DNA from: Microcaldota archaeon
GTDB lineage: Archaea; Micrarchaeota; Micrarchaeia; Micrarchaeales; CABMGC01
NCBI GenBank assembly: GCA_021810455.1
Contig: JAJZIU010000003.1
Span: 1 to 49,172 of the forward strand
DNA: 49,172 bases
Direction of reading: 5' to 3'
Positions 1 to 49,083 of the stretch are shown here, in pieces (within the stretch, counting starts at the first letter, position 1; each line of letters starts with the position of its first letter). The translations under genes were made by a program, and so were the position numbers. Below the pieces are notes generated by a model. That model was not told where the DNA came from, ran no database searches, and saw nothing but the letters and a program-made list of their open reading frames with translations.

Positions 1-589
1 GAGTTGTAGGAGAGCCGTAACTGGTTGTAGGAACACTCCACACGGTTTCGCCATTATAAGCATTAAGCGAAGTGAGGTACGAAGAAGATGATGTTGTATT
101 TGTTGTGAAGAGCATGTTGTTGTAGAGCATTAGATAACCCGGAGTCGAGGTTGGGAAGTTTCTTTGCCATACTTTGCTCCCATAAGTTGCATTCAGAGCG
201 TATATCGTATTTCCAGAAGCAAAGTAGATATTGCCATAATTGACAAAAACCTTGGAGTTTATCGTGCTGTTGGTTGGAAATATGAATGATATAGAAGATG
301 ATAAAGGACCGTACCCGGTAGCACCACTGTTTGCATTGTTTTTTTGATACTCGTTCCAAGTATCAGTACTTGCAGCTCCTTGATAGGTTATATTATATGC
401 AGTAGGGTTTCCAGTAGCCAACTCGCCGATGTTTGCTGACATCAATGTTTTTGATATTCCTTGCACATCGGCATAAGCAGATAGATAAGGAGCTGGAGGA
501 TAATAACTGAAGTATAGAAGTATGGATATGGCTACCGAAGCTATTATCAATGAGAATATTGCGTCTGTGGTAAAGACTACGGCTCGCAT
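1..589 (-). CDS. Partial (runs off left edge) membrane-anchored PQQ/beta-propeller-like surface protein, N-terminus MRAVVFTTDAIFSLIIASVAISILLYFSYYPP...
   Basis: Open minus frame from ATG at 587-589 to window edge, absent from ORF track; N-terminal hydrophobic segment and propeller-like repeats (YFASGNTIYALNATYGSKVWQRNF, SLNAYNGETVWSVP). Confidence 0.8.
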   Translation of the reverse strand, partial: MRAVVFTTDAIFSLIIASVAISILLYFSYYPPAPYLSAYADVQGISKTLMSANIGELATGNPTAYNITYQGAASTDTWNEYQKNNANSGATGYGPLSSSISFIFPTNSTINSKVFVNYGNIYFASGNTIYALNATYGSKVWQRNFPTSTPGYLMLYNNMLFTTNTTSSSSYLTSLNAYNGETVWSVPTTSYGSPTT

Positions 590-679
590 ATGCTTTAGTA
601 TCCATATTCATGTTTTTATTGCTATGCGTGGACGACAGTGTAGATGGTTTATAATTGGCAAACCATTATACAGGATAAA

Positions 680-2743
680 TCACGTTCTGACCTTGTTTGG
701 AGTCGGATTTGATCTGCGAAGCACACTTGCTATATTGACTCCGGAAGTGCTTATCTCTTTTATCTTATCTTCGCAGAATTGCGAGAAGCGAGATAGCATG
801 TTGCCATAAATTCCGCCGTTGGTGATTTTATCGCTTAGTCCTCTCCTCATCATCTGCATATCAACATATCTGGATTTTTTGGACAGTTCCTGCAATGAAG
901 ATATAACACGCTCATCGTAAGAATTCTCACGTATCATCCTTCCAACATCTATTGCTTGCACAAAGTTGAGTTTGGGATCTGAAGAGTTAAGTAGAAGTTT
1001 CATGTCAAGCCGATCTATCCTCCCTCTTTCGAAATCTGCTATGTGTACCATAGAGAGAACCATGTTGTCTATTATTGCGTTTTGCTTGTCTGGTACGAGT
1101 CCGAAATCACGCATAATTACATCAAGACCAACTTCCCTGCCCAGCAAGTATGTAGCATATGCTTTTGATGCTTCGTTTAGTTCGCGACTGCGGATTACAT
1201 ACTTTAGCATAGGAAAATAACTCTCGCTTATTTTGTCTTTCATAAGGAGTTCCCCGAATAGTGGCTTTCTCACATCGCTATCGTGAAATGCATGCTTTGA
1301 GAGATTACCAGCTATTTCAGGATCATTGAGTTTGCCAAACCTACTAAGTTCCACAACTATTTCTTTTTTTATTACCGCAGGCTGGTTCTGTAATTCTTTT
1401 TTAAGAACCTCGAGTATGCGTTCCTTGGATCCATGGACCATTTCGAGTTGATATGCTCTCAGTTTCAGTTCGTTAGATTTTGAATCGAAAGTATCGTGAA
1501 GCGTTTTTATTATATCGGCCATACCTTCTGAAGATTTAGTATAAGTCATAGATTTTACTAAAGCTATAAGAACGGTTTCGTCAGACTCTTTGAGTAGGGC
1601 TTTTTGAGCCATTTGAGGAGTTATTACACCATGCTCACCTAGCTGCATGAACGCTTGCATGCGTACCGCAGGTATTGAGTCGTTGTATGCTGAGAACTGT
1701 ATGATCGGTTTGTATCTTTCAAAATTTATTTTTGACATGGCATATATGGATAGTTCTCTCATTCCAGGATCGTCATTTGATTTGAAGGCGCGAAGAAGAA
1801 CGTCATTCTCATCTATCCTTGCCGATATAGAAAACCACATAGCAGCATATGCGAGAGACTTGTTTCCATTCTTTTTCATGCCTTCATCGAAAAGATATCG
1901 AATATCCTTCTGCAGATCAGCTTCACTTATCATACCAGCGTGCAGTAGTATGTTATCCCTAACTTCTATCATTAGCGGATCGCTTGTCTTGAATTTCAAG
2001 GCTCTTTCTCCAAGTTCATTGAAGCCGTCCTTTCCAAGCATCATTAGAAGTGTGGATATTTCAAATGCACCAGTGTATCTTGCAAGGAAATATAGGTGAT
2101 CGCTCTCCGGCCAGAATTTTTGGCCTTCTTTTGTAACATGTATTGGTTGCAATCCGTGTTTAAGTAGATAGAAGCTTGTAAAAAGTCTGTCCAATCTTCC
2201 GTTTCCATCTTCGAAAGGATGCAGATCTACAAGTCTTAGGAAAAATTCTGTTGAACTTGCAAATGCATCAATAGGGGAATCATGTTTTAGGTTTAGTAAG
2301 GATATTATCTCATTAAGGTCTTTTTCTACAGTGCTTACTGGAGTGACTATGTGTGGTCCGTTGCTAAGTCTGTATCTTCTCAATCCTTCTTTGTACTTAC
2401 CGTTCCCATATATGCCATCAAGTAATCTTTTTCTTACCGCAAGCACATCGGATGTTGTTACCTCCTTATCATTCAAATCAACAAGCATGTCCAGTACATT
2501 GGATGAGTTAAGTATGGCTATGTAATCAGGTATTTTGCCGTCTTTTTCGCGTATCGCACCGCTCAAAAACAAATCTATGGGACTGATGGATTTCGCATCC
2601 GCATCTGTTTCAGAATAGAATATTGCTTTAATTATACTGTGTGACAATTCCGATCTGAAATCGCCTTTTACGGATATCAGATCAGATATCCCAAGTCTCT
2701 CGAGCATCTCCTTGTAATGGGCTTCCATAAAAACATTCCACAC
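680..2743 (-). CDS. Fic-domain protein with long C-terminal HEAT-like helical repeat region (start may be ATG at 2728)
   Basis: Canonical Fic motif HPFEDGNGRLDR; C-terminal ~400 aa with HEAT-like helical pairs. Confidence 0.88.
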   Translation of the reverse strand: MWNVFMEAHYKEMLERLGISDLISVKGDFRSELSHSIIKAIFYSETDADAKSISPIDLFLSGAIREKDGKIPDYIAILNSSNVLDMLVDLNDKEVTTSDVLAVRKRLLDGIYGNGKYKEGLRRYRLSNGPHIVTPVSTVEKDLNEIISLLNLKHDSPIDAFASSTEFFLRLVDLHPFEDGNGRLDRLFTSFYLLKHGLQPIHVTKEGQKFWPESDHLYFLARYTGAFEISTLLMMLGKDGFNELGERALKFKTSDPLMIEVRDNILLHAGMISEADLQKDIRYLFDEGMKKNGNKSLAYAAMWFSISARIDENDVLLRAFKSNDDPGMRELSIYAMSKINFERYKPIIQFSAYNDSIPAVRMQAFMQLGEHGVITPQMAQKALLKESDETVLIALVKSMTYTKSSEGMADIIKTLHDTFDSKSNELKLRAYQLEMVHGSKERILEVLKKELQNQPAVIKKEIVVELSRFGKLNDPEIAGNLSKHAFHDSDVRKPLFGELLMKDKISESYFPMLKYVIRSRELNEASKAYATYLLGREVGLDVIMRDFGLVPDKQNAIIDNMVLSMVHIADFERGRIDRLDMKLLLNSSDPKLNFVQAIDVGRMIRENSYDERVISSLQELSKKSRYVDMQMMRRGLSDKITNGGIYGNMLSRFSQFCEDKIKEISTSGVNIASVLRRSNPTPNKVRT

Positions 2744-2766
2744 TATGTTTTTGACACATTTTCATT

Positions 2767-2794
2767 TTGCATGTCATTGAACTTTGACATGCAA
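2767..2794. repeat. Perfect inverted repeat TTGCATGTCA-TTGAACTT-TGACATGCAA
   Basis: 10-bp perfect arms, 8-nt spacer, upstream of the fic start codon. Confidence 0.85.
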
Positions 2795-2807
2795 TACCCT
2801 ACCTGTA

Positions 2808-2905
2808 CAGAGTGATAATAGGTGCATACATGCCAGGCACTAAAGAAGAAGTTAAGGCAGTGAGCTAATGCAGTTCGTTGTCTTAAACCAAACACCTACA
2901 CTCTG
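2808..2905 (-). ncRNA. Candidate structured leader or small RNA upstream of fic
   Basis: Closing stem CAGAGTG..TAGGTG / CACCTACACTCTG around ~70 nt; internal TTAAG/CTTAA pairing; TATA-like TTTATATC on minus strand ~25 nt upstream. Confidence 0.4.
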
Positions 2906-3060
2906 ATTATGGTGTCTTTTTTGCTGATATAAATACTTTTCTAACGTGTAAAGTCAAGAATTGAAAATCAAGCATAGCAATAAATAGTAGTAATTACTTA
3001 ATAGTTAGTTTGTTGACTAACAGAAACACTTGCACTGTTAAGCTGTTTTTTATTTATATG

Positions 3061-4215
3061 TCATCTCCATCGAGTCTTTGGAAGCAGCACATCCTTGTAA
3101 TTTTCTAGCCTGTTTTTGTTTGGAAGTAGATCCTTTATGATTTCACCTATTGCATCTTTCATTTGTACTTTTAGCTTGAATCCTAATGAAGGCAGCACGG
3201 TCCTTTCAGGATTGTAATGATGCTGTTCCTCTTCAACTCTTGGATTTTCAACATTTTTTATTTTTGCATCTATACCTAGTTTTGCTGCTTCAGTTTTTAC
3301 TATCTCGGCGATCTCATTCACACTTAGCAATTCCATGAATTGGTTTACAGATCGGTATTCTCCAGTCTTTGGTTTGTTCTCTATGAGAAGGGTCAATGCA
3401 TCCATGCTATCTTGCAATGAGAGGAATCCGCGAATTTGACCCCCTTTACCGTATGGCGTTAGTGGTTCTCCCAGAATGGCCTCGACACAATACCTATTGA
3501 CAACAGTCCCCCACACCGCATCGAAATCAAATCTCGTGAATAGATCTTCACTTTTTATCTCGCTCGTCCTAGTACCATATACAGGCCCTTGCATTATGTC
3601 GGTCATTGTTATCCCCCATAATTTATTTGCGAATAATAGATTGTTAGTATCGTGAACTTTTGTCCAGTGATACCAGGAACCGCCCCATTTTGGAGTGGTT
3701 ATCTTGTCTCTTTTGCCTTTTATTTCCACGTCAACAAACGGTGCTTCGGGTATATCGAATTTTGGAGTTCCGAATTCCCCCATAGTGCCCATTTTCACAA
3801 CGTGAGTATCTAAATCAGCACCCCTTATAGCATAAATGAGGTTGATTGTTCCGTTGATATTATTTCTCATAGTGTAGGTAGCATGATTTACATCAATCAT
3901 CGAGTATGGTGCAGATCTTTGCTCAGCAAAGTGTACTATCGTTTCAGGTGTGTGCTCTTTTATAGTATCACATATGAGTTTGTAATCAGTTATGTCACCC
4001 TTTACAAATGTTATTTTGCCTTTGAATTCTTTATTTGCAATTTTGACACGTTCATCCATGGACTTAATCGGGAGGGCCGATATAGACCCAACCTCTTCCA
4101 CAGATTTCCTTGTTGCCATGTTGTCGATTCCTATAACTTCGTATCCTTTAGATGCCATTCTCAGTGCCAGTGGCCATCCCAAATATCCGTCTATTCCCAA
4201 TATCATTACTTTCAA
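3061..4215 (-). CDS. NAD-dependent epimerase, UDP-sulfoquinovose synthase (SQD1)-like
   Basis: MILGIDGYLGWPLALRMASKGYEVIGIDN Rossmann start; SQD1-like segments HFAEQRSAPYSMID, KMGTMGEFGTP, GSWYHWTKVHDTNN. Confidence 0.85.
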   Translation of the reverse strand: MKVMILGIDGYLGWPLALRMASKGYEVIGIDNMATRKSVEEVGSISALPIKSMDERVKIANKEFKGKITFVKGDITDYKLICDTIKEHTPETIVHFAEQRSAPYSMIDVNHATYTMRNNINGTINLIYAIRGADLDTHVVKMGTMGEFGTPKFDIPEAPFVDVEIKGKRDKITTPKWGGSWYHWTKVHDTNNLLFANKLWGITMTDIMQGPVYGTRTSEIKSEDLFTRFDFDAVWGTVVNRYCVEAILGEPLTPYGKGGQIRGFLSLQDSMDALTLLIENKPKTGEYRSVNQFMELLSVNEIAEIVKTEAAKLGIDAKIKNVENPRVEEEQHHYNPERTVLPSLGFKLKVQMKDAIGEIIKDLLPNKNRLENYKDVLLPKTRWR

Positions 4216-4236
4216 TTACTCACCAGTAAACACGAT

Positions 4237-5613
4237 TCAACCTAAATTTTCCTCAACCAGCCCCTTAAGCTTATCGGATATGGATTTGGCTTCAGAATTA
4301 TCCTTTGCTTCAGTAGTTATCCGTATTACAGGTTCTGTTCCACTTTTGCGCACTATGAACCAGTATCCATTTCCAACAAACTTCAGACCATCTTCGTCTA
4401 TATCATCAACTGTGCCATTTCCGGAATATTTTTCTTTGATTTTTTCTATAATAGATTTCATGTTTGTACTTCTTGATGCGGATACTTTCAATTTTTGGGT
4501 GTGATACATAGGCAAAGTTGAGAATAACGTAGATGAATCCTCATCGTGGTTAGAGAGCATTTCCACCATTATGGCAAATGCCATTCCACCGTCACGAACA
4601 GGTTGATGCTCGGGATACATAAATCCCCCACTGTCCTCTATGCCGGCTATCCCGCCATCATTTATCAAAGCCCGTGATATGAACATAGGTCCTATTTTTG
4701 TCCAGATGGTTTTTACATTGAATTCGTTGAGATATTCTTCTATTAGAGGGGAACTGGCTATAGGAGCAAACACCCTCCTTGGAAGCTTCTTTTCTTTTGA
4801 TGCTAGCCAACCAGCAAGAAGAGCGCCGCTTCTATCTCCAAACTGGACTTTTCCCTTAGAATCTATGAATATAGCTCTATCAGCATCTCCATCATGAGCT
4901 ACAGTTATGTCTACCCCTAATCTGACAGATATTTCAGCGGTTTTTATTAGTGTTTCTGGAGTTGGTTCCGGTTTTCTTGAAGACATAAGAGGATCCAACT
5001 TCGTATTTATTTCGTAAATTTGGCATCCCAATTCTTTTGCTATAGCGACAGTTGTTATAGAGCCAACACTGTTTGCCCCATCTATCAAAACTTTCAATCT
5101 GCGTTTTGATATCTGTGCTTTGTTAACGTGTTTAACAACACCAGAAACATAGTCTTTTATTGAATTCTCATAAGTGTGTATATCTGTTGTAAGCTTTTTC
5201 CAATTGACAGGATTCATATCGTTTTTGAAGTATATCGATTCTATTTTGTCTTCTTCTGAAGAATCTATTTCTATGCCATCTTTACCGATGACCTTTATCC
5301 CATTGAATTCGGGAGGGTTATGACTAGCTGTTATCATTACACCAGCATCAAATCCTGCAGCTTTAACATTGAATTGTAATGCGGGAGTAGGAAGCACGCC
5401 AGCGTATGTGACTATTTCTCCAGAAGCCATTAACCCACTTTCCACAGCCCTTATGATCATATCTCCACCAGCACGCACATCCCTGCCTATTAATATTTTC
5501 TTCCCTTCACCGAAGTATGTCCCTATGGATTTGCCCATTCGCATAGCTAACTCAGGTGTGAGTTCTTCGTTGGTTACACCGCGTATTCCATTCGTGCCAA
5601 ACAGTTTTCCCAT
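4237..5613 (-). CDS. Phosphohexomutase (phosphoglucosamine mutase / phosphomannomutase family)
   Basis: FGTNGIRG, TASHNPPEFNGIK, DGDADRA, GTEPVIRI motifs. Confidence 0.92.
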   Translation of the reverse strand: MGKLFGTNGIRGVTNEELTPELAMRMGKSIGTYFGEGKKILIGRDVRAGGDMIIRAVESGLMASGEIVTYAGVLPTPALQFNVKAAGFDAGVMITASHNPPEFNGIKVIGKDGIEIDSSEEDKIESIYFKNDMNPVNWKKLTTDIHTYENSIKDYVSGVVKHVNKAQISKRRLKVLIDGANSVGSITTVAIAKELGCQIYEINTKLDPLMSSRKPEPTPETLIKTAEISVRLGVDITVAHDGDADRAIFIDSKGKVQFGDRSGALLAGWLASKEKKLPRRVFAPIASSPLIEEYLNEFNVKTIWTKIGPMFISRALINDGGIAGIEDSGGFMYPEHQPVRDGGMAFAIMVEMLSNHDEDSSTLFSTLPMYHTQKLKVSASRSTNMKSIIEKIKEKYSGNGTVDDIDEDGLKFVGNGYWFIVRKSGTEPVIRITTEAKDNSEAKSISDKLKGLVEENLG

Positions 5614-5616
5614 GAT

Positions 5617-7044
5617 TCAACCTTCTTTATTATTTATCCCATAGAAGCTTAATATCATTTCGAATATGTCAACAACCTTGAGATATTTTGAATGTTTAAA
5701 GCTGTTCGGATAAAGACCGAAAATTCCTTCTCTAGTATGGTCACCGTTTCTTGCAGGTTCTGGAACAGAGAATAGTTCCGATCCAGAATAATTGAATATA
5801 TCTATAGTGTGACCATCACTTATTTTGAAAATAATATCCGGGGTTATGTTGTCTTTTGACTTTTTTGCATCGTAGAGTTCTGTGACAAGTTTTTTCCCTT
5901 CGTCATCCTTCATAGCTAGCATTTTTTTGATGATTTCTTTCTTCAACTTGTTTCGTTCTTTTTCTGTTACGCGTTGTGAAATAAATCTTGAGTCATTTAT
6001 CCATATGCTACCGAACGGATTGTTTGTTAATGATGCAAATGCTTTTGTCGATTTCATATCTAATGTTTTTGTGTCCTTTGTTTCTTCAATATCATTTTCC
6101 ACTACGCTCGCGCATATGAATTTCATCACGGTTGTCTTAGAAGATACATTAATCTGTTCTAACTTGTTTCTTGAAGCCTTGTTATTTTCAAGATTTGACG
6201 TTTCATAAGGGTTGGGTTTCTCACTTGTTCGTTTTATAGAAGCGTAATTGTTGTTTATCAGCCATGCATTAAGCATGAATTTGCTACGTATTCCCTGCGC
6301 ACCATGATCGGAAACTAGCATTATTACATCTTCCGGATTCTTCCATGAAATCAGCCACTCGATGAATTGCGATATGTGACGATATAGAGGTTCGACAAAA
6401 TCCTCCCAGTTTCGCATATTGAGTGTATAATGTTGTATTCTGTCAATCTCAGTGAAGCAGATAAATGAGAATCCGTATTTACCAGAGGTAATAAGGTTTT
6501 TCGTCATTTCTGACCTGTTTTTAATGCTTTCAGAGTATATTTTTGTTGCCTCAGATAGTTTAAGCGTACCTTGCCTTAAACCTTCTTCTATCTCTGGCTC
6601 TCCATAGAAACCAGATTTTTTTGCTGCGTTTTTAAGTTTGTTGGAAGAATAGCGCGGTTTTAGTGGAAAACCCGTAATGATATCGACGTTTGATGAACCT
6701 GTTTGAACAACTGTTGCAGGGGTTACTATAAGGCACTTCACACCGTTTCGAGCAAGGATTTCCCAGAATGGAGGATGTCTTTTTGTGTCATAGTATATGA
6801 GTTCTTTAGTGTAATCCTTATTTAATTTAAAAAAATTAGTTACTCCGTGAATACTGGGATCTAATCCAGTGTATATGCTTGGCCATGCTACAGGAGTAAG
6901 AGGAGGTATGGTAGATTCCAAGTTTTCCAGTGTTCCGGAATCAATAAATTTTAGAAATCCTTTGAGTTTGTATTTAGAAGATAATTTTTTTATTATCCAT
7001 TTTGGTGCAGAATCTATACCTATTACGAACAGTCTCTTGTTCAT
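5617..7044 (-). CDS. Alkaline phosphatase superfamily / type I phosphodiesterase-nucleotide pyrophosphatase-like
   Basis: VIGIDSAPKWII, PPLTPVAWPSIYTG, VSDHGAQG metal-site motifs. Confidence 0.85.
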   Translation of the reverse strand: MNKRLFVIGIDSAPKWIIKKLSSKYKLKGFLKFIDSGTLENLESTIPPLTPVAWPSIYTGLDPSIHGVTNFFKLNKDYTKELIYYDTKRHPPFWEILARNGVKCLIVTPATVVQTGSSNVDIITGFPLKPRYSSNKLKNAAKKSGFYGEPEIEEGLRQGTLKLSEATKIYSESIKNRSEMTKNLITSGKYGFSFICFTEIDRIQHYTLNMRNWEDFVEPLYRHISQFIEWLISWKNPEDVIMLVSDHGAQGIRSKFMLNAWLINNNYASIKRTSEKPNPYETSNLENNKASRNKLEQINVSSKTTVMKFICASVVENDIEETKDTKTLDMKSTKAFASLTNNPFGSIWINDSRFISQRVTEKERNKLKKEIIKKMLAMKDDEGKKLVTELYDAKKSKDNITPDIIFKISDGHTIDIFNYSGSELFSVPEPARNGDHTREGIFGLYPNSFKHSKYLKVVDIFEMILSFYGINNKEG

Positions 7045-40948: not shown

Positions 40949-42247
40949 TTATTTCATAAACTGTGAAAATCTCTTTTTTACGTTTCTATCGTTTTTAAAC
41001 ATTTCATAAAACTTTTTCATTTTGCTGAAGTCGCTTAACAAGCCTTTAACTTCTTTTTCGTCGGTACCGCTGCCCATCGAAATCCTTCGTATCCTACTTG
41101 GATCTCTCACTAATTTTTCGCTTTGTCTTTCCTCTTTAGTCATTGAACCGATTATTGCCTTATACACTTTGAGTTTGCCTTCTCCTTGTTCAACGTACTC
41201 TTTTGGAACATCTGCAAAACCCATCATACCAAGTACATTTTTCATCGGACCCATTTTTGACATGGCTTTCAACTGTGTGTAGAAAGTATCAAAATTAAGT
41301 TCGGTTACTTCGACTTCTTCGGGTTTTATATTAGCTTCCCTTATTGCTTCGTTTACATGCGTTGCGAGGGCCTCTAAATCAGGTATACCAAGCAATCTGC
41401 CTACAAATTTCTCAGAGTTATACAGTTCAAGAGAGTTGAGTTTTTCACCAGTACCTATAAACATTATATTTACATTTGCAGCGCTAACCGCACTTAGTGC
41501 ACCGCCTCCTTTGCCACTTCCGTCCATTTTTGTTACTACTACGCCAGTTATATTTATCGCGTTATTGAACTCTTTGGCTTGTGTTCCTGCAACTTGCCCT
41601 ATATCAGCATTTATTACCAGGAGTTTTTCGTCGGGTTTGAATTCGTTGTTTATCTGTATTAGCTCGTTTACCAGTTGTTGGTCCAATGCACTCCTTCCGC
41701 TAGAATCGCATATTATTACCTTCCTTGAACCAAGTTCTTTCAATCCTTCAGTTACTATTTTCTTTACATCTGTTTCCCCTTTTATTCCGAAGAATTGTGC
41801 GTTGGCCTGTTTTGAGAGCATCTCTAGTTGTTCAAATGCGGCTGGTCTTGAAACGTCACAACAGATCATGCCCACGCTAAGACCGCGGTCTTGATAAAAT
41901 TTCGCGAGTTTTGCAGCAGTGGTTGTCTTTCCAGAACCATATATCCCTACAAGCAGTATCCGTTTGGGTTTTATTTCTGGCTGATGATTCTTTCCCATCA
42001 ATTTAACAAGTTCCTGATAGACAGTATTAGTTACATATTCTTTAGGACTTATTCCTTCTGGGAGCTTATTATGAAGCGCTATGTCTTCTATTTTTTTAGT
42101 AAATTCGAATACGAGATTTATATCAACATCAGAAGAGATTAGTGCTTTTTGAAGTTCTTTGTTAAACTCGCGTATTGTTTTCGAATCTATTATTGTTGAG
42201 CCGGTGAGCCTAGATATTGCCTTCCTGATACCCTCTCCTAAATCCAT
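40949..42247 (-). CDS. ffh: Signal recognition particle GTPase SRP54
   Basis: GIYGSGKTTTAAKLAKFYQDRG, DSSGRSALD, KMDGSGKGGGALS. Confidence 0.96.
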   Translation of the reverse strand: MDLGEGIRKAISRLTGSTIIDSKTIREFNKELQKALISSDVDINLVFEFTKKIEDIALHNKLPEGISPKEYVTNTVYQELVKLMGKNHQPEIKPKRILLVGIYGSGKTTTAAKLAKFYQDRGLSVGMICCDVSRPAAFEQLEMLSKQANAQFFGIKGETDVKKIVTEGLKELGSRKVIICDSSGRSALDQQLVNELIQINNEFKPDEKLLVINADIGQVAGTQAKEFNNAINITGVVVTKMDGSGKGGGALSAVSAANVNIMFIGTGEKLNSLELYNSEKFVGRLLGIPDLEALATHVNEAIREANIKPEEVEVTELNFDTFYTQLKAMSKMGPMKNVLGMMGFADVPKEYVEQGEGKLKVYKAIIGSMTKEERQSEKLVRDPSRIRRISMGSGTDEKEVKGLLSDFSKMKKFYEMFKNDRNVKKRFSQFMK

Positions 42248-42304: not shown

Positions 42305-42393
42305 GGGCTCGTAGCTCAGCCTGGTTAGAGCGGCGGTCTTATAATAAATCATAAGAGAGCCGTAGGTCAGGAGTTCAAATCTCCTCGGGCCCA
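42305..42393 (+). tRNA. tRNA with 14-nt intron at 37/38 (42344-42357), predicted anticodon UAU (Ile)
   Basis: Acceptor GGGCTCG/CGGGCCC, D GCTC/GAGC, anticodon stem GCGGT/GCCGT, T AGGAG/CTCCT; BHB CTTA/TAAG with TAA and AGA bulges. Confidence 0.85.
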
Positions 42394-42423
42394 TCCATAA
42401 TAATAGAGACGAGGTTTGGGATG

Positions 42424-42470
42424 CCTCCTTCACACGGAGGAGACCCGGAGTCCGATTCTCCGCGGGCCCA
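42424..42470 (+). tRNA. tRNA-Val(CAC)-like 3' portion without a canonical 5' half
   Basis: CCTCC-TTCACAC-GGAGG anticodon arm, CGGAG-TCCGATT-CTCCG T arm, CGGGCCC-A acceptor strand. Confidence 0.7.
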
Positions 42471-42500
42471 CTTAATAACTAATTTAAGATTATTGATAGA

Positions 42501-43265
42501 TTATGCCACTACTGCATAGTTTACAACAAATGCAACAACGAATCCTATGAGAATTCCGAGATAGGTAAGCAACATCAGATATTTCATTTCTTTTCTGTCT
42601 TCAATCCTACTCTTGTTTATATTTACATGGAATAGAGCAAGTATTACATATAGAATCGCAGCGCTTGCCAATGCATCGAAGAAGACGATGAACATTTTCG
42701 AAAAGAATACTAGACCTAGAAGCGTGCCTAGTATCGTAGGTATTCCGCCTATCAGAAATGCGGCAGACATGAATTTCTTCTCTATCTTTACTTTTGAACC
42801 AACGAGAGGTGCGGCTATTGGAAATCCTTCAGTAAGATTCTGGAGTGTAAAGCCTATAGCTGAAAGTACATATATGGAAACTATGCCTGCGGCGCCTGCG
42901 GAACCGAAAACAAGACCTTCGGTGAGATTCTGCAAGCCGATACCTATCGCAGCTAATATTGAAGTGCGTTTGGGATTCTCTTCAGGATCTCGGCTCTCTT
43001 TAGGGCCTATGAAAAAAAGAAAGGAAACAAGAAATCCGACAAGAAAAACTATTTCTAAAGGATCTGTAATTGGCATGTTGCCGAATATTGAAGACACATC
43101 ACCATAAATATCTACAAGGAGAAACGCAAGAATACCTATAGCAATCGCATTGAAGCCTAGCATCTGTCGTAGTGTTATCTTTTTATAAAGTATAACGGGT
43201 AATGAAAGGAAAACAGAGAAACCCATCACTACAGATAGTAATACAGTAAGATCAATGTTAAGCAT
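42501..43265 (-). CDS. ZIP-family metal transporter-like
   Basis: Eight-TM-like, paired QNLTEG motifs at the positions of HNxPEG. Confidence 0.8.
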   Translation of the reverse strand: MLNIDLTVLLSVVMGFSVFLSLPVILYKKITLRQMLGFNAIAIGILAFLLVDIYGDVSSIFGNMPITDPLEIVFLVGFLVSFLFFIGPKESRDPEENPKRTSILAAIGIGLQNLTEGLVFGSAGAAGIVSIYVLSAIGFTLQNLTEGFPIAAPLVGSKVKIEKKFMSAAFLIGGIPTILGTLLGLVFFSKMFIVFFDALASAAILYVILALFHVNINKSRIEDRKEMKYLMLLTYLGILIGFVVAFVVNYAVVA

Positions 43266-43319
43266 ACCGAACCAGTAAATATAACTGGGTTATATTTTAT
43301 ATGTTTTTCTGGTTTATGG

Positions 43320-44060
43320 TCACTTGCGCCATTTTGACATGTAATCTGTTATGTTTTTTATTTCTAAGGAACTTAGCAAGCCCTGTTCTGCAAGCCAGTT
43401 TACTATGTCACTTATCTTTGCTGCAGAATGAAGCTTCATGCCATGTTCTGAAAGAACTTGGGATCCCCCTTCTTCCCGATCTATCAAAACGAAGACGTCC
43501 TTTACAGTTACATTTAGTTTCTTATTTGCAGCTTCGGCGAGTATCATGTCTCTTGCTTCTATTTTGCTGCCTGCATCAGTAACTACGTCATCCACTATGC
43601 CTATCACATCGTTGTTTTTCATTTCGCCATCAACAAGGCGTTTTATACCGTGAGATTTGAGATTACCCATTTCTTCTATTACGTGTAAAACTTTATCAAC
43701 AATGGGAAGCTCCGAGCTATCGAACTTTTCATGTGACATTTTTTTAAGATTTGCGACTAGCTCTTTGTATATTGAAGGTTCTTTGCGCGTGTAGATTGAA
43801 GGAATACCTGCTTCTGCACCTACGGAAGTTACAATAGCTATACCTGCGAGAGGTATGCCACACAGCCTGTTTACCTCGGAATTAGAATTTTGAATAAGCT
43901 CGGCGATAGTTTTTCCAACAAGAGACAGAGCTTCGGGATGAGAAGGTAACACGCGAAGATCGATGTAGTACGGACTCTGTCTACCTGATTTTATTGTGAA
44001 TGTGCCAAACTTTATTGCGTTGATTTCGAAGAGGGTTTTGGCAAGCAGTTTCCCATCCAT
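43320..44060 (-). CDS. pyrE: Orotate phosphoribosyltransferase with ~40-aa catalytic-loop insertion
   Basis: FTIKSGRQSPYYIDLR, YTRKE, GIVDDVVTDAGSKIE. Confidence 0.9.
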   Translation of the reverse strand: MDGKLLAKTLFEINAIKFGTFTIKSGRQSPYYIDLRVLPSHPEALSLVGKTIAELIQNSNSEVNRLCGIPLAGIAIVTSVGAEAGIPSIYTRKEPSIYKELVANLKKMSHEKFDSSELPIVDKVLHVIEEMGNLKSHGIKRLVDGEMKNNDVIGIVDDVVTDAGSKIEARDMILAEAANKKLNVTVKDVFVLIDREEGGSQVLSEHGMKLHSAAKISDIVNWLAEQGLLSSLEIKNITDYMSKWRK

Positions 44061-44070
44061 AAGAGCACCT

Positions 44071-44667
44071 TCACAACTTGCCTATATCATTTACAATGTC
44101 GATATCCAACGCTCTCTTTCCAAGACGCCAGTTTGCAGGAACCGCACATACGTGACCTTCTGCGGCAGGAGTCTCACGAACATACTTCAAACCCATAAAT
44201 GCAGTGAATATATGATCCGTATCCTTCCCTAAAGCGTCGTTGTGAATTGCGAAATATTGCACCTTGCCATCTGGATCTATTATTACCGTGCCACGTCTTG
44301 CCGCCCCAGTATCTGAATTGAGAAATCCATAATCCGTAGAGATCTTTTTATTAAAGTCATCTATAAGAGGAATTTTGCTCTTCTTTACACGAGGAGAAGT
44401 TTCACTCCATGCCTTGTGTGAAAACACACTATCGGTACTTATTGCGTATATCTTGGCGTCGTTCTTTTCAAAATCTTCATAGTTAGACATAAACGCTTCT
44501 ATGTCAGTTGCACACACAAAAGTGAAATCTCCAGGATAGAACGCAAGTATAATCCATTTGCCCCTCATTCCAGAAAGTTTGAATTCGGATATTTTACTTT
44601 CGCTCGGAAACCATGCTTTAGATTTTATCTCTGGTGCTTGTTCCCCTATATTCAAAAGATTTTGCAT
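44071..44667 (-). CDS. 2-Cys peroxiredoxin (AhpC family)
   Basis: FYPGDFTFVCATDI; C-terminal HVCAVPANW. Confidence 0.93.
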   Translation of the reverse strand: MQNLLNIGEQAPEIKSKAWFPSESKISEFKLSGMRGKWIILAFYPGDFTFVCATDIEAFMSNYEDFEKNDAKIYAISTDSVFSHKAWSETSPRVKKSKIPLIDDFNKKISTDYGFLNSDTGAARRGTVIIDPDGKVQYFAIHNDALGKDTDHIFTAFMGLKYVRETPAAEGHVCAVPANWRLGKRALDIDIVNDIGKL

Positions 44668-44733
44668 TATACCATCAGTAGAAGTTATATCAGTAAAGGT
44701 ATAAATTCCTTGTTGTAAAACAGAGTTATACTG

Positions 44734-45363
44734 CTATTGAATTAGCATCTTTAAAATCGTGCTCCTATCTTTAAGGTCTTTCAGCACTGTTGATGCTCCG
44801 GCAAGCTCAAGCTCCTGCTTGGAGTGTCTGCTTGTTTCTATACCTATGCTTTTCAAACCCAAGTCAGAACTTGACTTTATGTATACAGGAGAACAGCTTA
44901 CAAACACTCCTGCTTTTTTAGGCAGATTGTAATCCTTTTCTATAGTTGAAAGCGCATGGGAAAGTATATCCTTCATATAAAATCCATTTTCGTTGTACGA
45001 GCCGAACTTGAAATATTCACTGATTTTTGCCTCTTGAAGCCTCATCTTTGTGATCTTCTCTTCATCACCAGTAGCCGCACCTACAAGGACATTTTTTTGT
45101 TTAAGTTCATTAAGAAGTTCGACCATGCCATCCAATACATTCATCTTGCCTTTCCAGGAAACATTGTAATAAGAATAAGGAAGATCTTCGAGATAACGAT
45201 CGAGTTTGCTTTCTATCTCAGCATTTGGCATACCGTAAACGTTTAGAACATGTTTAGCTATTTCCTTTGCGGTTAGACCATCATAGGAATCTAGTTTGAC
45301 TTTTACTATTGCACCGTATATATTCATTATCGACTCTTCAACATACGGAGAGACGTCCTTCAC
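44734..45363 (-). CDS. HAD-superfamily hydrolase-like; conserved N-terminal strand lies upstream (possible ATT start at 45426)
   Basis: VGAATGDEEKITKMRLQ and GVFVSCSPVYIKSSSDLGLKSIGIET HAD-like segments; upstream in-frame NFILFDTQKVII. Confidence 0.7.
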   Translation of the reverse strand: MKDVSPYVEESIMNIYGAIVKVKLDSYDGLTAKEIAKHVLNVYGMPNAEIESKLDRYLEDLPYSYYNVSWKGKMNVLDGMVELLNELKQKNVLVGAATGDEEKITKMRLQEAKISEYFKFGSYNENGFYMKDILSHALSTIEKDYNLPKKAGVFVSCSPVYIKSSSDLGLKSIGIETSRHSKQELELAGASTVLKDLKDRSTILKMLIQ

Positions 45364-45461
45364 ATCGCTTATTATAACCTTTTGGGTATCGAATAATATG
45401 AAATTGTCCGTAGAAACACGCTCAATTGAATGAGTGTGTTAAAGTATAAAAATTTGATTGT

Positions 45462-45761
45462 ATGATCGAGTCTACTGAACGTAAGATAGCGATTGAGAGG
45501 ATGCAGAGATTATTTGAACTTGCAAGTCAGAGGACACTTATGGGAGGAGATTCCCTAAAACTTGCTAAAAAGTACACATTCATAGCTAAGGGAATAAGCA
45601 AGCATTATAGGATAAGCATGCCTAAAGAAATCCAAAGAAACATCTGCAAAAAATGTGATGCGATATTAATACCAGGCATTAATTGCAATGTGAGAGTGTC
45701 TAGGGGATGGATAATAAAAAAATGCAACATTTGCAGTACACAAAAGAGAATTTTTATCTGA
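45462..45761 (+). CDS. rnp4: RNase P protein component 4 (Rpp21)
   Basis: RMQRLFELASQ..AKKYTFIAKGISKHYRISMPKEIQRNICKKCDAIL..CNICS. Confidence 0.9.
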   Translation: MIESTERKIAIERMQRLFELASQRTLMGGDSLKLAKKYTFIAKGISKHYRISMPKEIQRNICKKCDAILIPGINCNVRVSRGWIIKKCNICSTQKRIFI

Positions 45762-46280
45762 TTACTTTATTCCCAGTTTGGAAACTATAGTGTCTGCGAA
45801 CTCGTATATTAGTTCGGAGTCTCCAAGAGTTACTATGTTCTTGTCGCTTTCTAGAGCAGAATTTGTAATAACTCCTTTGAACAGTTTCACGAGATGGTTT
45901 GTATCCTGATCTTTTGTGTTTGCTATTTTCATGTTTTGTATCATGTTGGTCCGAGCTATTATTTTTATTGCATTTCCAACACCAGCGACAAGCTTGTTGG
46001 ATTGAATAAACATCATAAGAAGATCGTGCAGTTGGCGAAGATCGTATAATTTAAACTGTTCCACGCCAGGGCCGTCGGCGAGTATTATGCCATCATAATC
46101 AAGAGGTATTAGTTGTGAGGTATTGAATGGTTTATAAACTGCGCCGTGATTTCCCATACAGTTCTTTGACGTATAGCTAGTTATAATGGTTTCAACCCCC
46201 CATTTTTCCAATATCTTTTTAGTTATGCTTACGGTTTCATCGCGAAAACCGGCCGGAGCTATAAGTATCGCAACTCTCAT
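45762..46280 (-). CDS. DJ-1/PfpI-like protein lacking nucleophile Cys
   Basis: DYDGIILADGPGVEQF; VAGVGNAIKIIA at the elbow. Confidence 0.75.
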   Translation of the reverse strand: MRVAILIAPAGFRDETVSITKKILEKWGVETIITSYTSKNCMGNHGAVYKPFNTSQLIPLDYDGIILADGPGVEQFKLYDLRQLHDLLMMFIQSNKLVAGVGNAIKIIARTNMIQNMKIANTKDQDTNHLVKLFKGVITNSALESDKNIVTLGDSELIYEFADTIVSKLGIK

Positions 46281-46319
46281 TATATCAGTTTTAGATAGAA
46301 AACAAAGGATAAAAAGGTT

Positions 46320-48299
46320 TCACTGTGTTTGAGAGGTTCCCCTGAGTCTGCGTTTTGAGATTTCATGTGCGAGTACTCCTAAGATTATCACTACGACAAA
46401 TATGATTATGTCGGTTATAGATATGAATATGATTGATGCGTTTGATCCTCCTGATGCTTTTACGGGCATCGTGATTCCTAGATATGTTGCTTTTCCAAAG
46501 ATTTCACCATATGGTACATCATTAAAGTTAACAATGCCACTAGAACCAGAATACATGTGAATATCCGTACCATTACTGAAGTTAAGATCCAAAGAGGCAT
46601 TTACAGGAAGGTCAAAAATGTCACGAGTAGTTACTTTTACATTGTAGATAGGTAGGTTGATGTAAATTGTAGAATTATCACTTATTGTTTCATTGTTGTT
46701 TGATGCCATAAATGTGTTTTTGTAGTAAGCTCCATTTATCAAGTATGTGACGCCTTCAAAGAGGAAATTTTCTGTAGGACTTGGTTTGTTGTTTATTACT
46801 AAGGAAGTGGGGGTTAGTACATTGCCATACGCATCCTTTAAAAGTATAGGTACAAGATACTCGTTTCTGAATTGCGCGTTAAGTTCAATGGGATTTTTAA
46901 CAAGCACATTTGCACTGCTGTTTTTGATCCCATTGCTCCATGAAAAGAATGAGTATTTTTTGTTTTGAGTTATTGTAGTGGTGTTAGGATAAACAGAAAC
47001 ATGCGCATATGTATTGTTAATGTACCAGCCGGTCCCTGTAGTGTTACCGTATGGCGTAGTGACATTTACGAAGTATTGATCGTCCCACAAGGCAGTTATA
47101 TTAGCAGGTGAGTTTACTACAATGCTGCTTTGTGTTGATGGCGATCCCATGCTCCAGTTAGCAAATACGGATCGGTAAGTATGATTATGATAAATGGTTG
47201 TAGGACTTACACCGAATTGTGCATTTGAGTGCGCATCGTACCAGCCGGTTCCTGTAGTGTTACCGTATGGCGTAGTGACATTTACGAAGTATTGTGTGGT
47301 CCACGTTGCAACTTCTGTTATGTTACTATCCATACGTATTACAGTGTAGTTTGAAGATCCCGTGTAAGAACCGTAACCCGTCCCCGTCCATCCCGTGAAC
47401 TTTTCACGTGTATAATTATTAATGTAAATGTATTCTGGCACGCTTATTGGAACGCGAGTATAAGCAACGTAACCGAATAGACCACCGATCCCTGCGTATT
47501 TCGAAACGATATCAAGGCTGTATCCAAGACTCCATAGTTGTGTCCCGTCAATAGGTCTTGACAATCCAGAACCCACCATAAAGTAATTTGTTCTACTATC
47601 GTATTCCTGGACTCCGTAAGGGTCTTGAATATTGCGTTCACCTTGGGCTCCAAAACCTATGTATGAATAACCAGTAGCTGCGGGCTTGAAGCGCCCATTT
47701 TTGTAATATGACAGATTGTAGAAAGTGACAGGTTGTATGTATGGGGTTATACCTGTCGAATTGGCAAGTTCTCCAAACGCAACTGGTATCGATGGTCCGG
47801 ATGTTGCAGAGCCAAGATCGGCAGTGCCTTTTTCTTGCCCATTAACAAGAATGTGCCAGGTGGTTCCTGTTGAATAGAAAGAATATGTATTAGAAGTACC
47901 GTTCGCACCGGCGGAACCTTGAGGACCTATAGCCCCAAGAAATGAAGCGTTGGCATTGCTTGCTGGAAAATATTCATAGAACCATTCAGCTTGTCCGGCA
48001 TTTATGATCTGGGTCGTACATTCAGATAAATCACAAAGCAGGGGATAATTGGCAGTAGTATTGGTTATCAAATAACCGACTTGGAGAAATGCGCCATTCT
48101 GAAGATTTTCACCAACCCAGAATGCAAGAGATCCGCCATTTGTGTTTTGAGGAATGATGGTCTTTATTGTTATTGCAGTGCCATTGTTGAATGCTGAATC
48201 TATGCCGCCCCTAGCCCCAAACTGAAACCAGTAAGTTGCACTTACTGTGTTAAGTATAAGCAGAAACAAAATAACTGCAAATAGATTATACCCTCTCAT
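46320..48299 (-). CDS. Large secreted, C-terminally membrane-anchored surface protein with InlB B-repeat-like domains
   Basis: Signal peptide, two QYFVNVTTPYGNTTGTGWY repeats, C-terminal TM IIIFVVVIILGVLAHEISKRR. Confidence 0.85.
   Translation of the reverse strand: MRGYNLFAVILFLLILNTVSATYWFQFGARGGIDSAFNNGTAITIKTIIPQNTNGGSLAFWVGENLQNGAFLQVGYLITNTTANYPLLCDLSECTTQIINAGQAEWFYEYFPASNANASFLGAIGPQGSAGANGTSNTYSFYSTGTTWHILVNGQEKGTADLGSATSGPSIPVAFGELANSTGITPYIQPVTFYNLSYYKNGRFKPAATGYSYIGFGAQGERNIQDPYGVQEYDSRTNYFMVGSGLSRPIDGTQLWSLGYSLDIVSKYAGIGGLFGYVAYTRVPISVPEYIYINNYTREKFTGWTGTGYGSYTGSSNYTVIRMDSNITEVATWTTQYFVNVTTPYGNTTGTGWYDAHSNAQFGVSPTTIYHNHTYRSVFANWSMGSPSTQSSIVVNSPANITALWDDQYFVNVTTPYGNTTGTGWYINNTYAHVSVYPNTTTITQNKKYSFFSWSNGIKNSSANVLVKNPIELNAQFRNEYLVPILLKDAYGNVLTPTSLVINNKPSPTENFLFEGVTYLINGAYYKNTFMASNNNETISDNSTIYINLPIYNVKVTTRDIFDLPVNASLDLNFSNGTDIHMYSGSSGIVNFNDVPYGEIFGKATYLGITMPVKASGGSNASIIFISITDIIIFVVVIILGVLAHEISKRRLRGTSQTQ
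47023..47078. repeat. 56-bp intragenic repeat copy 1
   Basis: One mismatch to 47239-47294. Confidence 0.9.
47239..47294. repeat. 56-bp intragenic repeat copy 2
   Basis: One mismatch to 47023-47078; offset 216 bp = 72 codons. Confidence 0.9.
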
Positions 48300-49083
48300 A
48301 GTCTAAACCAAATTCATTTAGTGTATTTATGACTTTTGTTCTTTCATTGGAATTCATTCCCTTCCAATCAAGTATGGCAACTTCTACCTCAAGTCTGCTT
48401 CTTTCTATAGCCAAAGGTATCATATCAAAATTATCAGTGCCGTCCTTGTTATGGAAAGAGTGTCTAGACATTATGTGTCCAAAGGCATAGTTGCTTTCCA
48501 TAGATTTTTTGTAAAACTTTGATGGGTAATGATTTCCGCCTATGCCTATTGCTATTTTTTCATAACCTACGTCTTCGTCTTTTATCGAGTCGTAAGCCAG
48601 GTCACCAAGCAATGCAATAATGTAAGGGCGAGATGTTATCTCGTCATTGCCGCCAACTTCAACAAAAAGAGAAGGAGTGTTCAGAAGTGGACCGTGATGT
48701 GTTGCCTCGTATGTTTTTTGTATTTCTGGAATAGTGTTTGGCATGTGTTTTAACACGGAAAGCATCTCCGCAGGAGCAGAAACTGAAAGTTGTTTAGGCA
48801 TTCCACCAAGACTTGCATCTTTTGTGAAATTCCCAGTAGCGTGCGTGGTGAATGAAGCTATACCAGCAGAACTTTTGTGCCTGCTGACCATATACAGAAT
48901 ATCAAACCCTTCACTATCGGCTTTTTCATAATGTATGAGTTCTTCTTCAATGCCAATAAATGAAACCTTATCAAGCATACAACGATGGTTTTCATCTTCT
49001 TCAAGATCATATTTTTTGAATAGCGAAGCCATTGCATTTGAAGCTGTTAAGTCGCGTTTTGAATAAATTAGCCCTATCATCAA
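48286..49083 (-). CDS. dtdA: Archaeal D-aminoacyl-tRNA deacylase DtdA
   Basis: THATGNF, YEATHHGPLLNTPSLFVEVG, GIGGNHYPSKF. Confidence 0.92.
   Translation of the reverse strand: MMIGLIYSKRDLTASNAMASLFKKYDLEEDENHRCMLDKVSFIGIEEELIHYEKADSEGFDILYMVSRHKSSAGIASFTTHATGNFTKDASLGGMPKQLSVSAPAEMLSVLKHMPNTIPEIQKTYEATHHGPLLNTPSLFVEVGGNDEITSRPYIIALLGDLAYDSIKDEDVGYEKIAIGIGGNHYPSKFYKKSMESNYAFGHIMSRHSFHNKDGTDNFDMIPLAIERSRLEVEVAILDWKGMNSNERTKVINTLNEFGLDYERV

What the first reader, a model, noticed from the sequence alone, without database searches (positions are those of the whole stretch)
42387..42470. tRNA-Val(CAC)-like gene without normal 5' half: overlapping, split or degenerate tRNA
Anticodon arm, T arm and 3' acceptor strand CGGGCCC-A are good, but no standard acceptor/D arm precedes them. 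The previous tRNA's 3' end GGGCCCA (42387-42393) could pair with CGGGCCC, i.e. a 7-nt overlap, followed by T8 and CAT/ATG as D-stem with an oversized ~22-nt D-loop. Alternatives: 3' half of a split tRNA with the 5' half elsewhere, or a pseudo-tRNA. The T-loop TCCGATT has C at position 55, which is unusual.
Basis: partly seen in the sequence, partly recalled or inferred. Interest (0 to 1): 0.7.

Follow-up and report, generated by a model that had tools for sequence, protein, structure and literature searches.

The report
Displaced 3' fragment of tRNA-Val(CAC)
A valine tRNA gene lacking its 5' third sits just behind a normal isoleucine tRNA in a small archaeal genome; it looks like a leftover of DNA integration at tRNA genes, a known process, rather than a new kind of overlapping or split tRNA.

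Summary
The half-gene is real. After an intact intron-containing tRNA-Ile(UAU) (42305-42393), bases 42413-42470 carry the D-loop end, D-stem 3' strand, anticodon arm (CAC), T arm and acceptor 3' strand of tRNA-Val(CAC), with no 5' part. The overlapping-cloverleaf idea fails: GGGCCC is a palindrome, so any two tRNAs ending in CGGGCCCA pair this way, and shuffled spacers fold just as stably. A split tRNA lacks positive evidence: no 5' half was found in the assembly, and nearly all related genomes, including the one held from the same genus, have an intact tRNA-Val(CAC), usually just behind scpB. scpB itself is missing from this 85%-complete assembly, so an intact gene may lie in the gap. This lineage carries tyrosine-integrase elements that use tRNA 3' parts as attachment sites. 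The same genome has one (tRNA-Glu, integrase, a modification methylase, 56-nt tRNA-Glu fragment). In sister genera the same tRNA-Ile(UAU) is followed by integrase genes and stray tRNA 3' fragments, one with the anticodon arm of another tRNA. The window fragment opens about 3 kb of DNA interrupting conserved gene order. Best reading: a displaced attachment-site relic. The exact route is inferred.

The parts
42305..42393 (+). intact tRNA-Ile(UAU) with a 14-nt intron; the gene behind which the fragment lies
   Evidence: ARAGORN and Rfam, 57.8 bits; conserved beside SRP54 across the family
42394..42412 (+). 19-nt spacer TCCATAATAATAGAGACGA, not tRNA-like
   Evidence: sequence
42413..42470 (+). 3' fragment of tRNA-Val(CAC): D-loop end, D-stem 3' strand, anticodon arm, T arm, acceptor 3' strand and A73
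   Evidence: Rfam 22.6 bits; 50 of 51 bases of 42420-42470 equal intact tRNA-Val(CAC) of G027
40949..42247 (-). SRP54 gene, conserved left neighbour of tRNA-Ile(UAU)
   Evidence: Pfam SRP54 domains; synteny
42471..45461 (.). about 3 kb (42501-43265, 43320-44060, 44071-44667, 44734-45363) between the fragment and the ancestral right neighbour
   Evidence: relatives have 46-1548 bp between tRNA-Ile(UAU) and the homologue of 45462-45761 in six genomes
45462..49083 (.). conserved block (45462-45761, 45762-46280, 46320-48299, 48286-49083) that follows tRNA-Ile(UAU) in relatives
   Evidence: tblastn against regions behind tRNA-Ile(UAU)

Best explanation
The feature is a non-functional 3' fragment of tRNA-Val(CAC) left by site-specific integration at tRNA genes. 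In this archaeal lineage tyrosine-integrase elements carry a copy of a tRNA's 3' part as attachment site. They integrate into the tRNA gene, which stays whole, and leave a 3' fragment running from about the D loop to A73 at the far end. Here a Val(CAC)-type fragment ended up directly behind tRNA-Ile(UAU), probably because an element with a Val-type site integrated there (both tRNAs end in CGGGCCCA), or because related elements at the Ile and Val genes recombined, after which the element's interior was lost. Shown: the fragment, the integration process and its fragments in the same genome, the same tRNA-Ile gene as an integration site in sister genera, and the break in gene order. Inferred: the order of events and the lack of function.
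For: Same genome: intact tRNA-Glu, integrase PF00589 opening at the tRNA 3' end, Eco57I-type methylase, then a 56-nt tRNA-Glu fragment beginning in the D loop. Sister genera: integrase or its pieces behind tRNA-Ile(UAU) (G021, G022) and behind tRNA-Val(CAC) (G033, G004); two tandem tRNA-Ile 3' fragments in G021; in G006 tRNA-Ile(UAU), short spacer, then a 3' fragment with the anticodon arm of a different tRNA and no element between. The window fragment lies where conserved order SRP54, tRNA-Ile(UAU), 45462 block is interrupted. Intact linear tRNA-Val(CAC) in nearly all relatives.
Against: No integrase remnant remains next to the fragment, the intact tRNA-Val(CAC) of this genome was not seen, and no tRNA-Ile fragment marks the right end of the 3-kb insertion. 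The fragment shows no decay in its stems, which would also fit a working gene.
Confidence: 0.72

Rival explanations
1. A true split tRNA: the locus is the 3' half of a trans-spliced tRNA-Val(CAC) broken in the D loop, with the 5' half in the unassembled part of the genome.
For: All stems of the half are perfect; no intact tRNA-Val(CAC) in the assembly; GGAT could pair with GTCC of a Val 5' half like that of G001.
Against: No convincing 5' half found. All relatives examined that have the gene have it whole, including G001 of the same genus. The locus where most relatives keep it, behind scpB, is itself missing from this assembly. No own promoter-like stretch. Fragments of the same kind in the same lineage are explained by integrases.
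Confidence: 0.07
2. A fragment moved by an ordinary chromosomal rearrangement, without an integrase: a piece of the tRNA-Val(CAC) downstream region was inserted behind tRNA-Ile(UAU).
For: A homologue of the neighbouring gene (42501-43265) lies downstream of tRNA-Val(CAC) in G047 (about 0.7 kb) and G024 (about 13 kb); the fragment starts a 3-kb interruption of conserved order.
Against: That gene is oriented the other way in G047, and integrase-made fragments behind this very tRNA gene in sister genera make an integrase route more likely.
Confidence: 0.17
3. An overlapping tRNA using the 3' end of tRNA-Ile (GGGCCCA) as its acceptor 5' strand.
For: 42387-42470 folds into a cloverleaf-like shape at -33.8 kcal/mol.
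Against: GGGCCC is self-complementary; 71% of shuffled spacers are at least as stable and 19% give the same acceptor plus a D-like stem. A-C at 7:66, no positions 8-9, 22-nt D loop. One transcript could not give both tRNAs.
Confidence: 0.02

Closest known systems
Displaced tRNA 3' fragments (attR) of archaeal tyrosine-integrase elements, SSV-type and pNOB8-type
   Same: 3' part of a tRNA gene, from about the D loop to the discriminator base, at an integration hot spot in a lineage with such integrases (PMC8371274).
   Different: No element between the intact tRNA and the fragment, and the fragment belongs to another tRNA than the one in front of it.
Split (trans-spliced) archaeal tRNAs of Nanoarchaeum, Caldivirga, Staphylothermus, Aeropyrum
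   Same: A 3' half with intact anticodon and T arms and no adjacent 5' half.
   Different: No 5' half, complementary leader, bulge-helix-bulge or own promoter found (PMC3218864).
Scattered tRNA-Thr fragment of Caldiarchaeum subterraneum
   Different: There a 5' fragment together with an intron gain; here a 3' fragment behind another tRNA.

Membership tests
Integration-derived tRNA 3' fragment (attR type) | Near-identical copy of the 3' part of a tRNA gene ending at the discriminator base | tested here: met
   50 of 51 bases equal the intact gene of G027, ends at A73
Integration-derived tRNA 3' fragment (attR type) | Integrase gene or its remnant between the intact tRNA and the fragment | tested here: not met
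   Only 19 nt lie between tRNA-Ile and the fragment; present in the tRNA-Glu case and in sister genera
Integration-derived tRNA 3' fragment (attR type) | Intact cognate tRNA at the other end of the element | tested here: inconclusive
   No intact tRNA-Val(CAC) in the 84.6%-complete assembly; scpB, its usual neighbour, is also missing
Split (trans-spliced) tRNA | A matching 5' half elsewhere in the genome | tested here: inconclusive
   No convincing candidate in the assembly; 15% of the genome is missing
Split (trans-spliced) tRNA | Complementary leader and trailer forming a bulge-helix-bulge | tested here: inconclusive
   11 sites match the complement of the leader with G-U allowed; none was seen beside a 5'-half pattern
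Split (trans-spliced) tRNA | Both halves transcribed and joined | not testable with these tools
   needs RNA
Overlapping tRNA | Complete cloverleaf with 7-bp acceptor, positions 8-9 and D arm | tested here: not met
   6 bp only, A-C at 7:66, no 8-9 linker; stability within shuffles

The most novel reading that the evidence does not exclude
The locus is the working 3' half of a recently split tRNA-Val(CAC) with a D-loop junction, created by an integrative element, with the 5' half in the unassembled 15% of the genome: a split tRNA caught soon after its birth by mobile-element insertion.
Probability: 0.07. Interest if true: 0.65.

Novelty: new member of a known kind. Interest (0 to 1): 0.22.

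Why it matters
As a relic it is ordinary, but it shows how tRNA 3' halves can be moved next to unrelated tRNA genes in small archaeal genomes, the raw material that published models invoke for the origin of split tRNAs. It also warns that split-tRNA searches in incomplete archaeal genomes will pick up attachment-site fragments.

Tried and rejected
Overlap cloverleaf: folded and compared with shuffled spacers, no better than chance. 5'-half patterns: every strict hit is a complete tRNA (some with introns) or lies in protein-coding sequence as far as read; two searches gave no convincing candidate, though not every loose hit was read in full. Circularly permuted gene: nothing like a 5' half in the bases after 42470. 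Shared 5' half with tRNA-Ile: the acceptor fits but the D stem does not (GCTC against GGAT). Reading the fragment as an integrase N-terminus, as in suicidal integrases: open frames exist, but no start codon and no clear similarity. Neighbourhood of tRNA-Val in G001 (lemA-htpX): not the usual place, and no Val gene there in this genome. Viral contigs: no exact match to the Val T-arm and acceptor.

Full report
What is there. The window lies in a 788-kb, 84.6%-complete assembly of 52 contigs. At 42305-42393 is a complete tRNA-Ile with anticodon UAU and a 14-nt intron. From about 42413 to 42470 follow the 3' two thirds of a tRNA-Val(CAC): D-loop end, GGAT as D-stem 3' strand, a perfect anticodon arm, a perfect T arm and CGGGCCC-A. 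Rfam gives this part 22.6 bits, below its cut-off of 29. Over 42420-42470 it differs at one base from the intact tRNA-Val(CAC) of another genus of the family and at nine bases from that of the one genome held from the same genus.

Overlap model. The pairing of GGGCCC at 42387-42392 with GGGCCC at 42464-42469 follows from the palindrome, since both tRNAs end in CGGGCCCA. With the spacer shuffled, 19% of sequences give the six acceptor pairs and at least four D-like pairs, and 71% are at least as stable as the real one. Positions 7-9 would be missing. This model is rejected.

Split model. Patterns for a 5' half that would complete the acceptor and D stems were searched in the whole assembly. The strict pattern finds complete tRNAs and coding sequence; two looser ones add no convincing candidate. 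The assembly is incomplete, however. In related genomes tRNA-Val(CAC) lies within 1.5 kb downstream of scpB on the same strand in 23 of 30 loci; scpB is found in 39 of 41 genomes and is missing from this one. The intact gene may therefore be in the gap, though in G001, the same-genus genome, tRNA-Val(CAC) lies elsewhere. No tRNA for His or Trp is among the hits either (by reading the anticodons). Two tRNA-Val(UAC) genes are present, so GUG codons could be read without the CAC tRNA (general knowledge). Absence of an intact gene is thus no evidence for splitting.

Integration fragments in this lineage. In the same genome contig C4 has intact tRNA-Glu(UUC) at 99-173, an integrase (PF00589) whose reading frame opens at the tRNA's 3' end, an Eco57I-type methylase, and at 6025-6080 a 56-nt tRNA-Glu 3' fragment beginning in the D loop. 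Contig C26 has intact tRNA-Asp and a degenerate copy 1 kb later. Related integrases or their pieces lie directly behind tRNA-Ile(UAU) in G021 and near it in G022, and behind tRNA-Val(CAC) in G033 and G004. In G021 two tandem tRNA-Ile 3' fragments lie beyond the integrase. In G006 tRNA-Ile(UAU) is followed after a short spacer by a 3' fragment whose anticodon arm reads TCGACTGATAATCGA, as in the tRNA-Ile(GAU) of the window's own genome, while its T arm matches the adjoining tRNA-Ile(UAU); that it came from G006's own Ile(GAU) gene was not checked. This is the layout seen in the window: an intact tRNA-Ile(UAU), a short spacer, a 3' fragment related to another tRNA, and no element.

Gene order. 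SRP54, tRNA-Ile(UAU) and a block of four genes are neighbours in several genera; the first gene of the block starts 46-1548 bp behind the tRNA in six of them. Here it starts 3069 bp behind, and the Val fragment is the first thing in the added stretch. A homologue of the gene next to the fragment (42501-43265; no Pfam match) lies downstream of tRNA-Val(CAC) in G047 and, further off, in G024, a hint that the fragment brought some of its own flank.

Literature. A review of archaeal tyrosine recombinases lists tRNA-Val(CAC) among the most targeted genes, notes attachment sites extending over the D loop, a case of integration in a non-cognate tRNA, and recombination between related elements (PMC8371274). 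[quoted passage not shown] Split archaeal tRNAs have own promoters, a bulge-helix-bulge and long complementary leaders (PMC3218864); none was found here.

Verdict. A displaced tRNA-Val(CAC) 3' fragment, most likely an attachment-site relic at an integration hot spot. Shown by the data: the fragment, the process in the same genome, the hot spot in sister genera, and the break in gene order. Inferred: which of non-cognate integration, recombination between elements, or a plain rearrangement produced it, and that it is not used as a half tRNA.

Noticed in passing
L177 (G000:C4:1-6400), 99-6080: About 6-kb integrated element in tRNA-Glu(UUC): tyrosine integrase, Eco57I-type methylase and further genes, ended by a 56-nt tRNA-Glu 3' fragment.
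   Followed up: partly
L178 (G000:C26:2900-4900), about 326-398 and 1419-1490: Intact tRNA-Asp(GUC) followed 1 kb later by a degenerate copy (28.7 bits) with the same 3' end; content between them not analysed.
   Followed up: no
L048 (C14:20543-20601, minus strand), L051 (C39 from 20033), L049 (C4 from 33958): tRNA-Arg(UCU), tRNA-Arg(CCU) and probably tRNA-Ala(GGC) carry an insertion in the T loop (after GTTCAAAT or GTTCAAA), which looks like a non-canonical intron; ARAGORN misses all three.
   Followed up: no
L260 (G021:C27:79900-87476), about 2446-2570: Two tandem tRNA-Ile 3' fragments about 93 nt apart beyond an integrase, as if two elements had used the same site.
   Followed up: partly
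L164 (G006), behind tRNA-Ile(UAU): Chimeric 3' fragment: anticodon arm like tRNA-Ile(GAU), T arm and acceptor like tRNA-Ile(UAU); looks like integration of a non-cognate attachment site followed by loss of the element.
   Followed up: partly
window 42305-42393: tRNA-Ile with a UAU anticodon, conserved beside SRP54 across the family; as far as I recall most archaea read AUA with a modified CAU anticodon instead.
   Followed up: no
window 42501-43265: 254-aa protein that looks like a ZIP-type metal transporter by eye, without a Pfam match at E 0.001; homologues in 16 of 41 genomes searched (this genome included).
   Followed up: no
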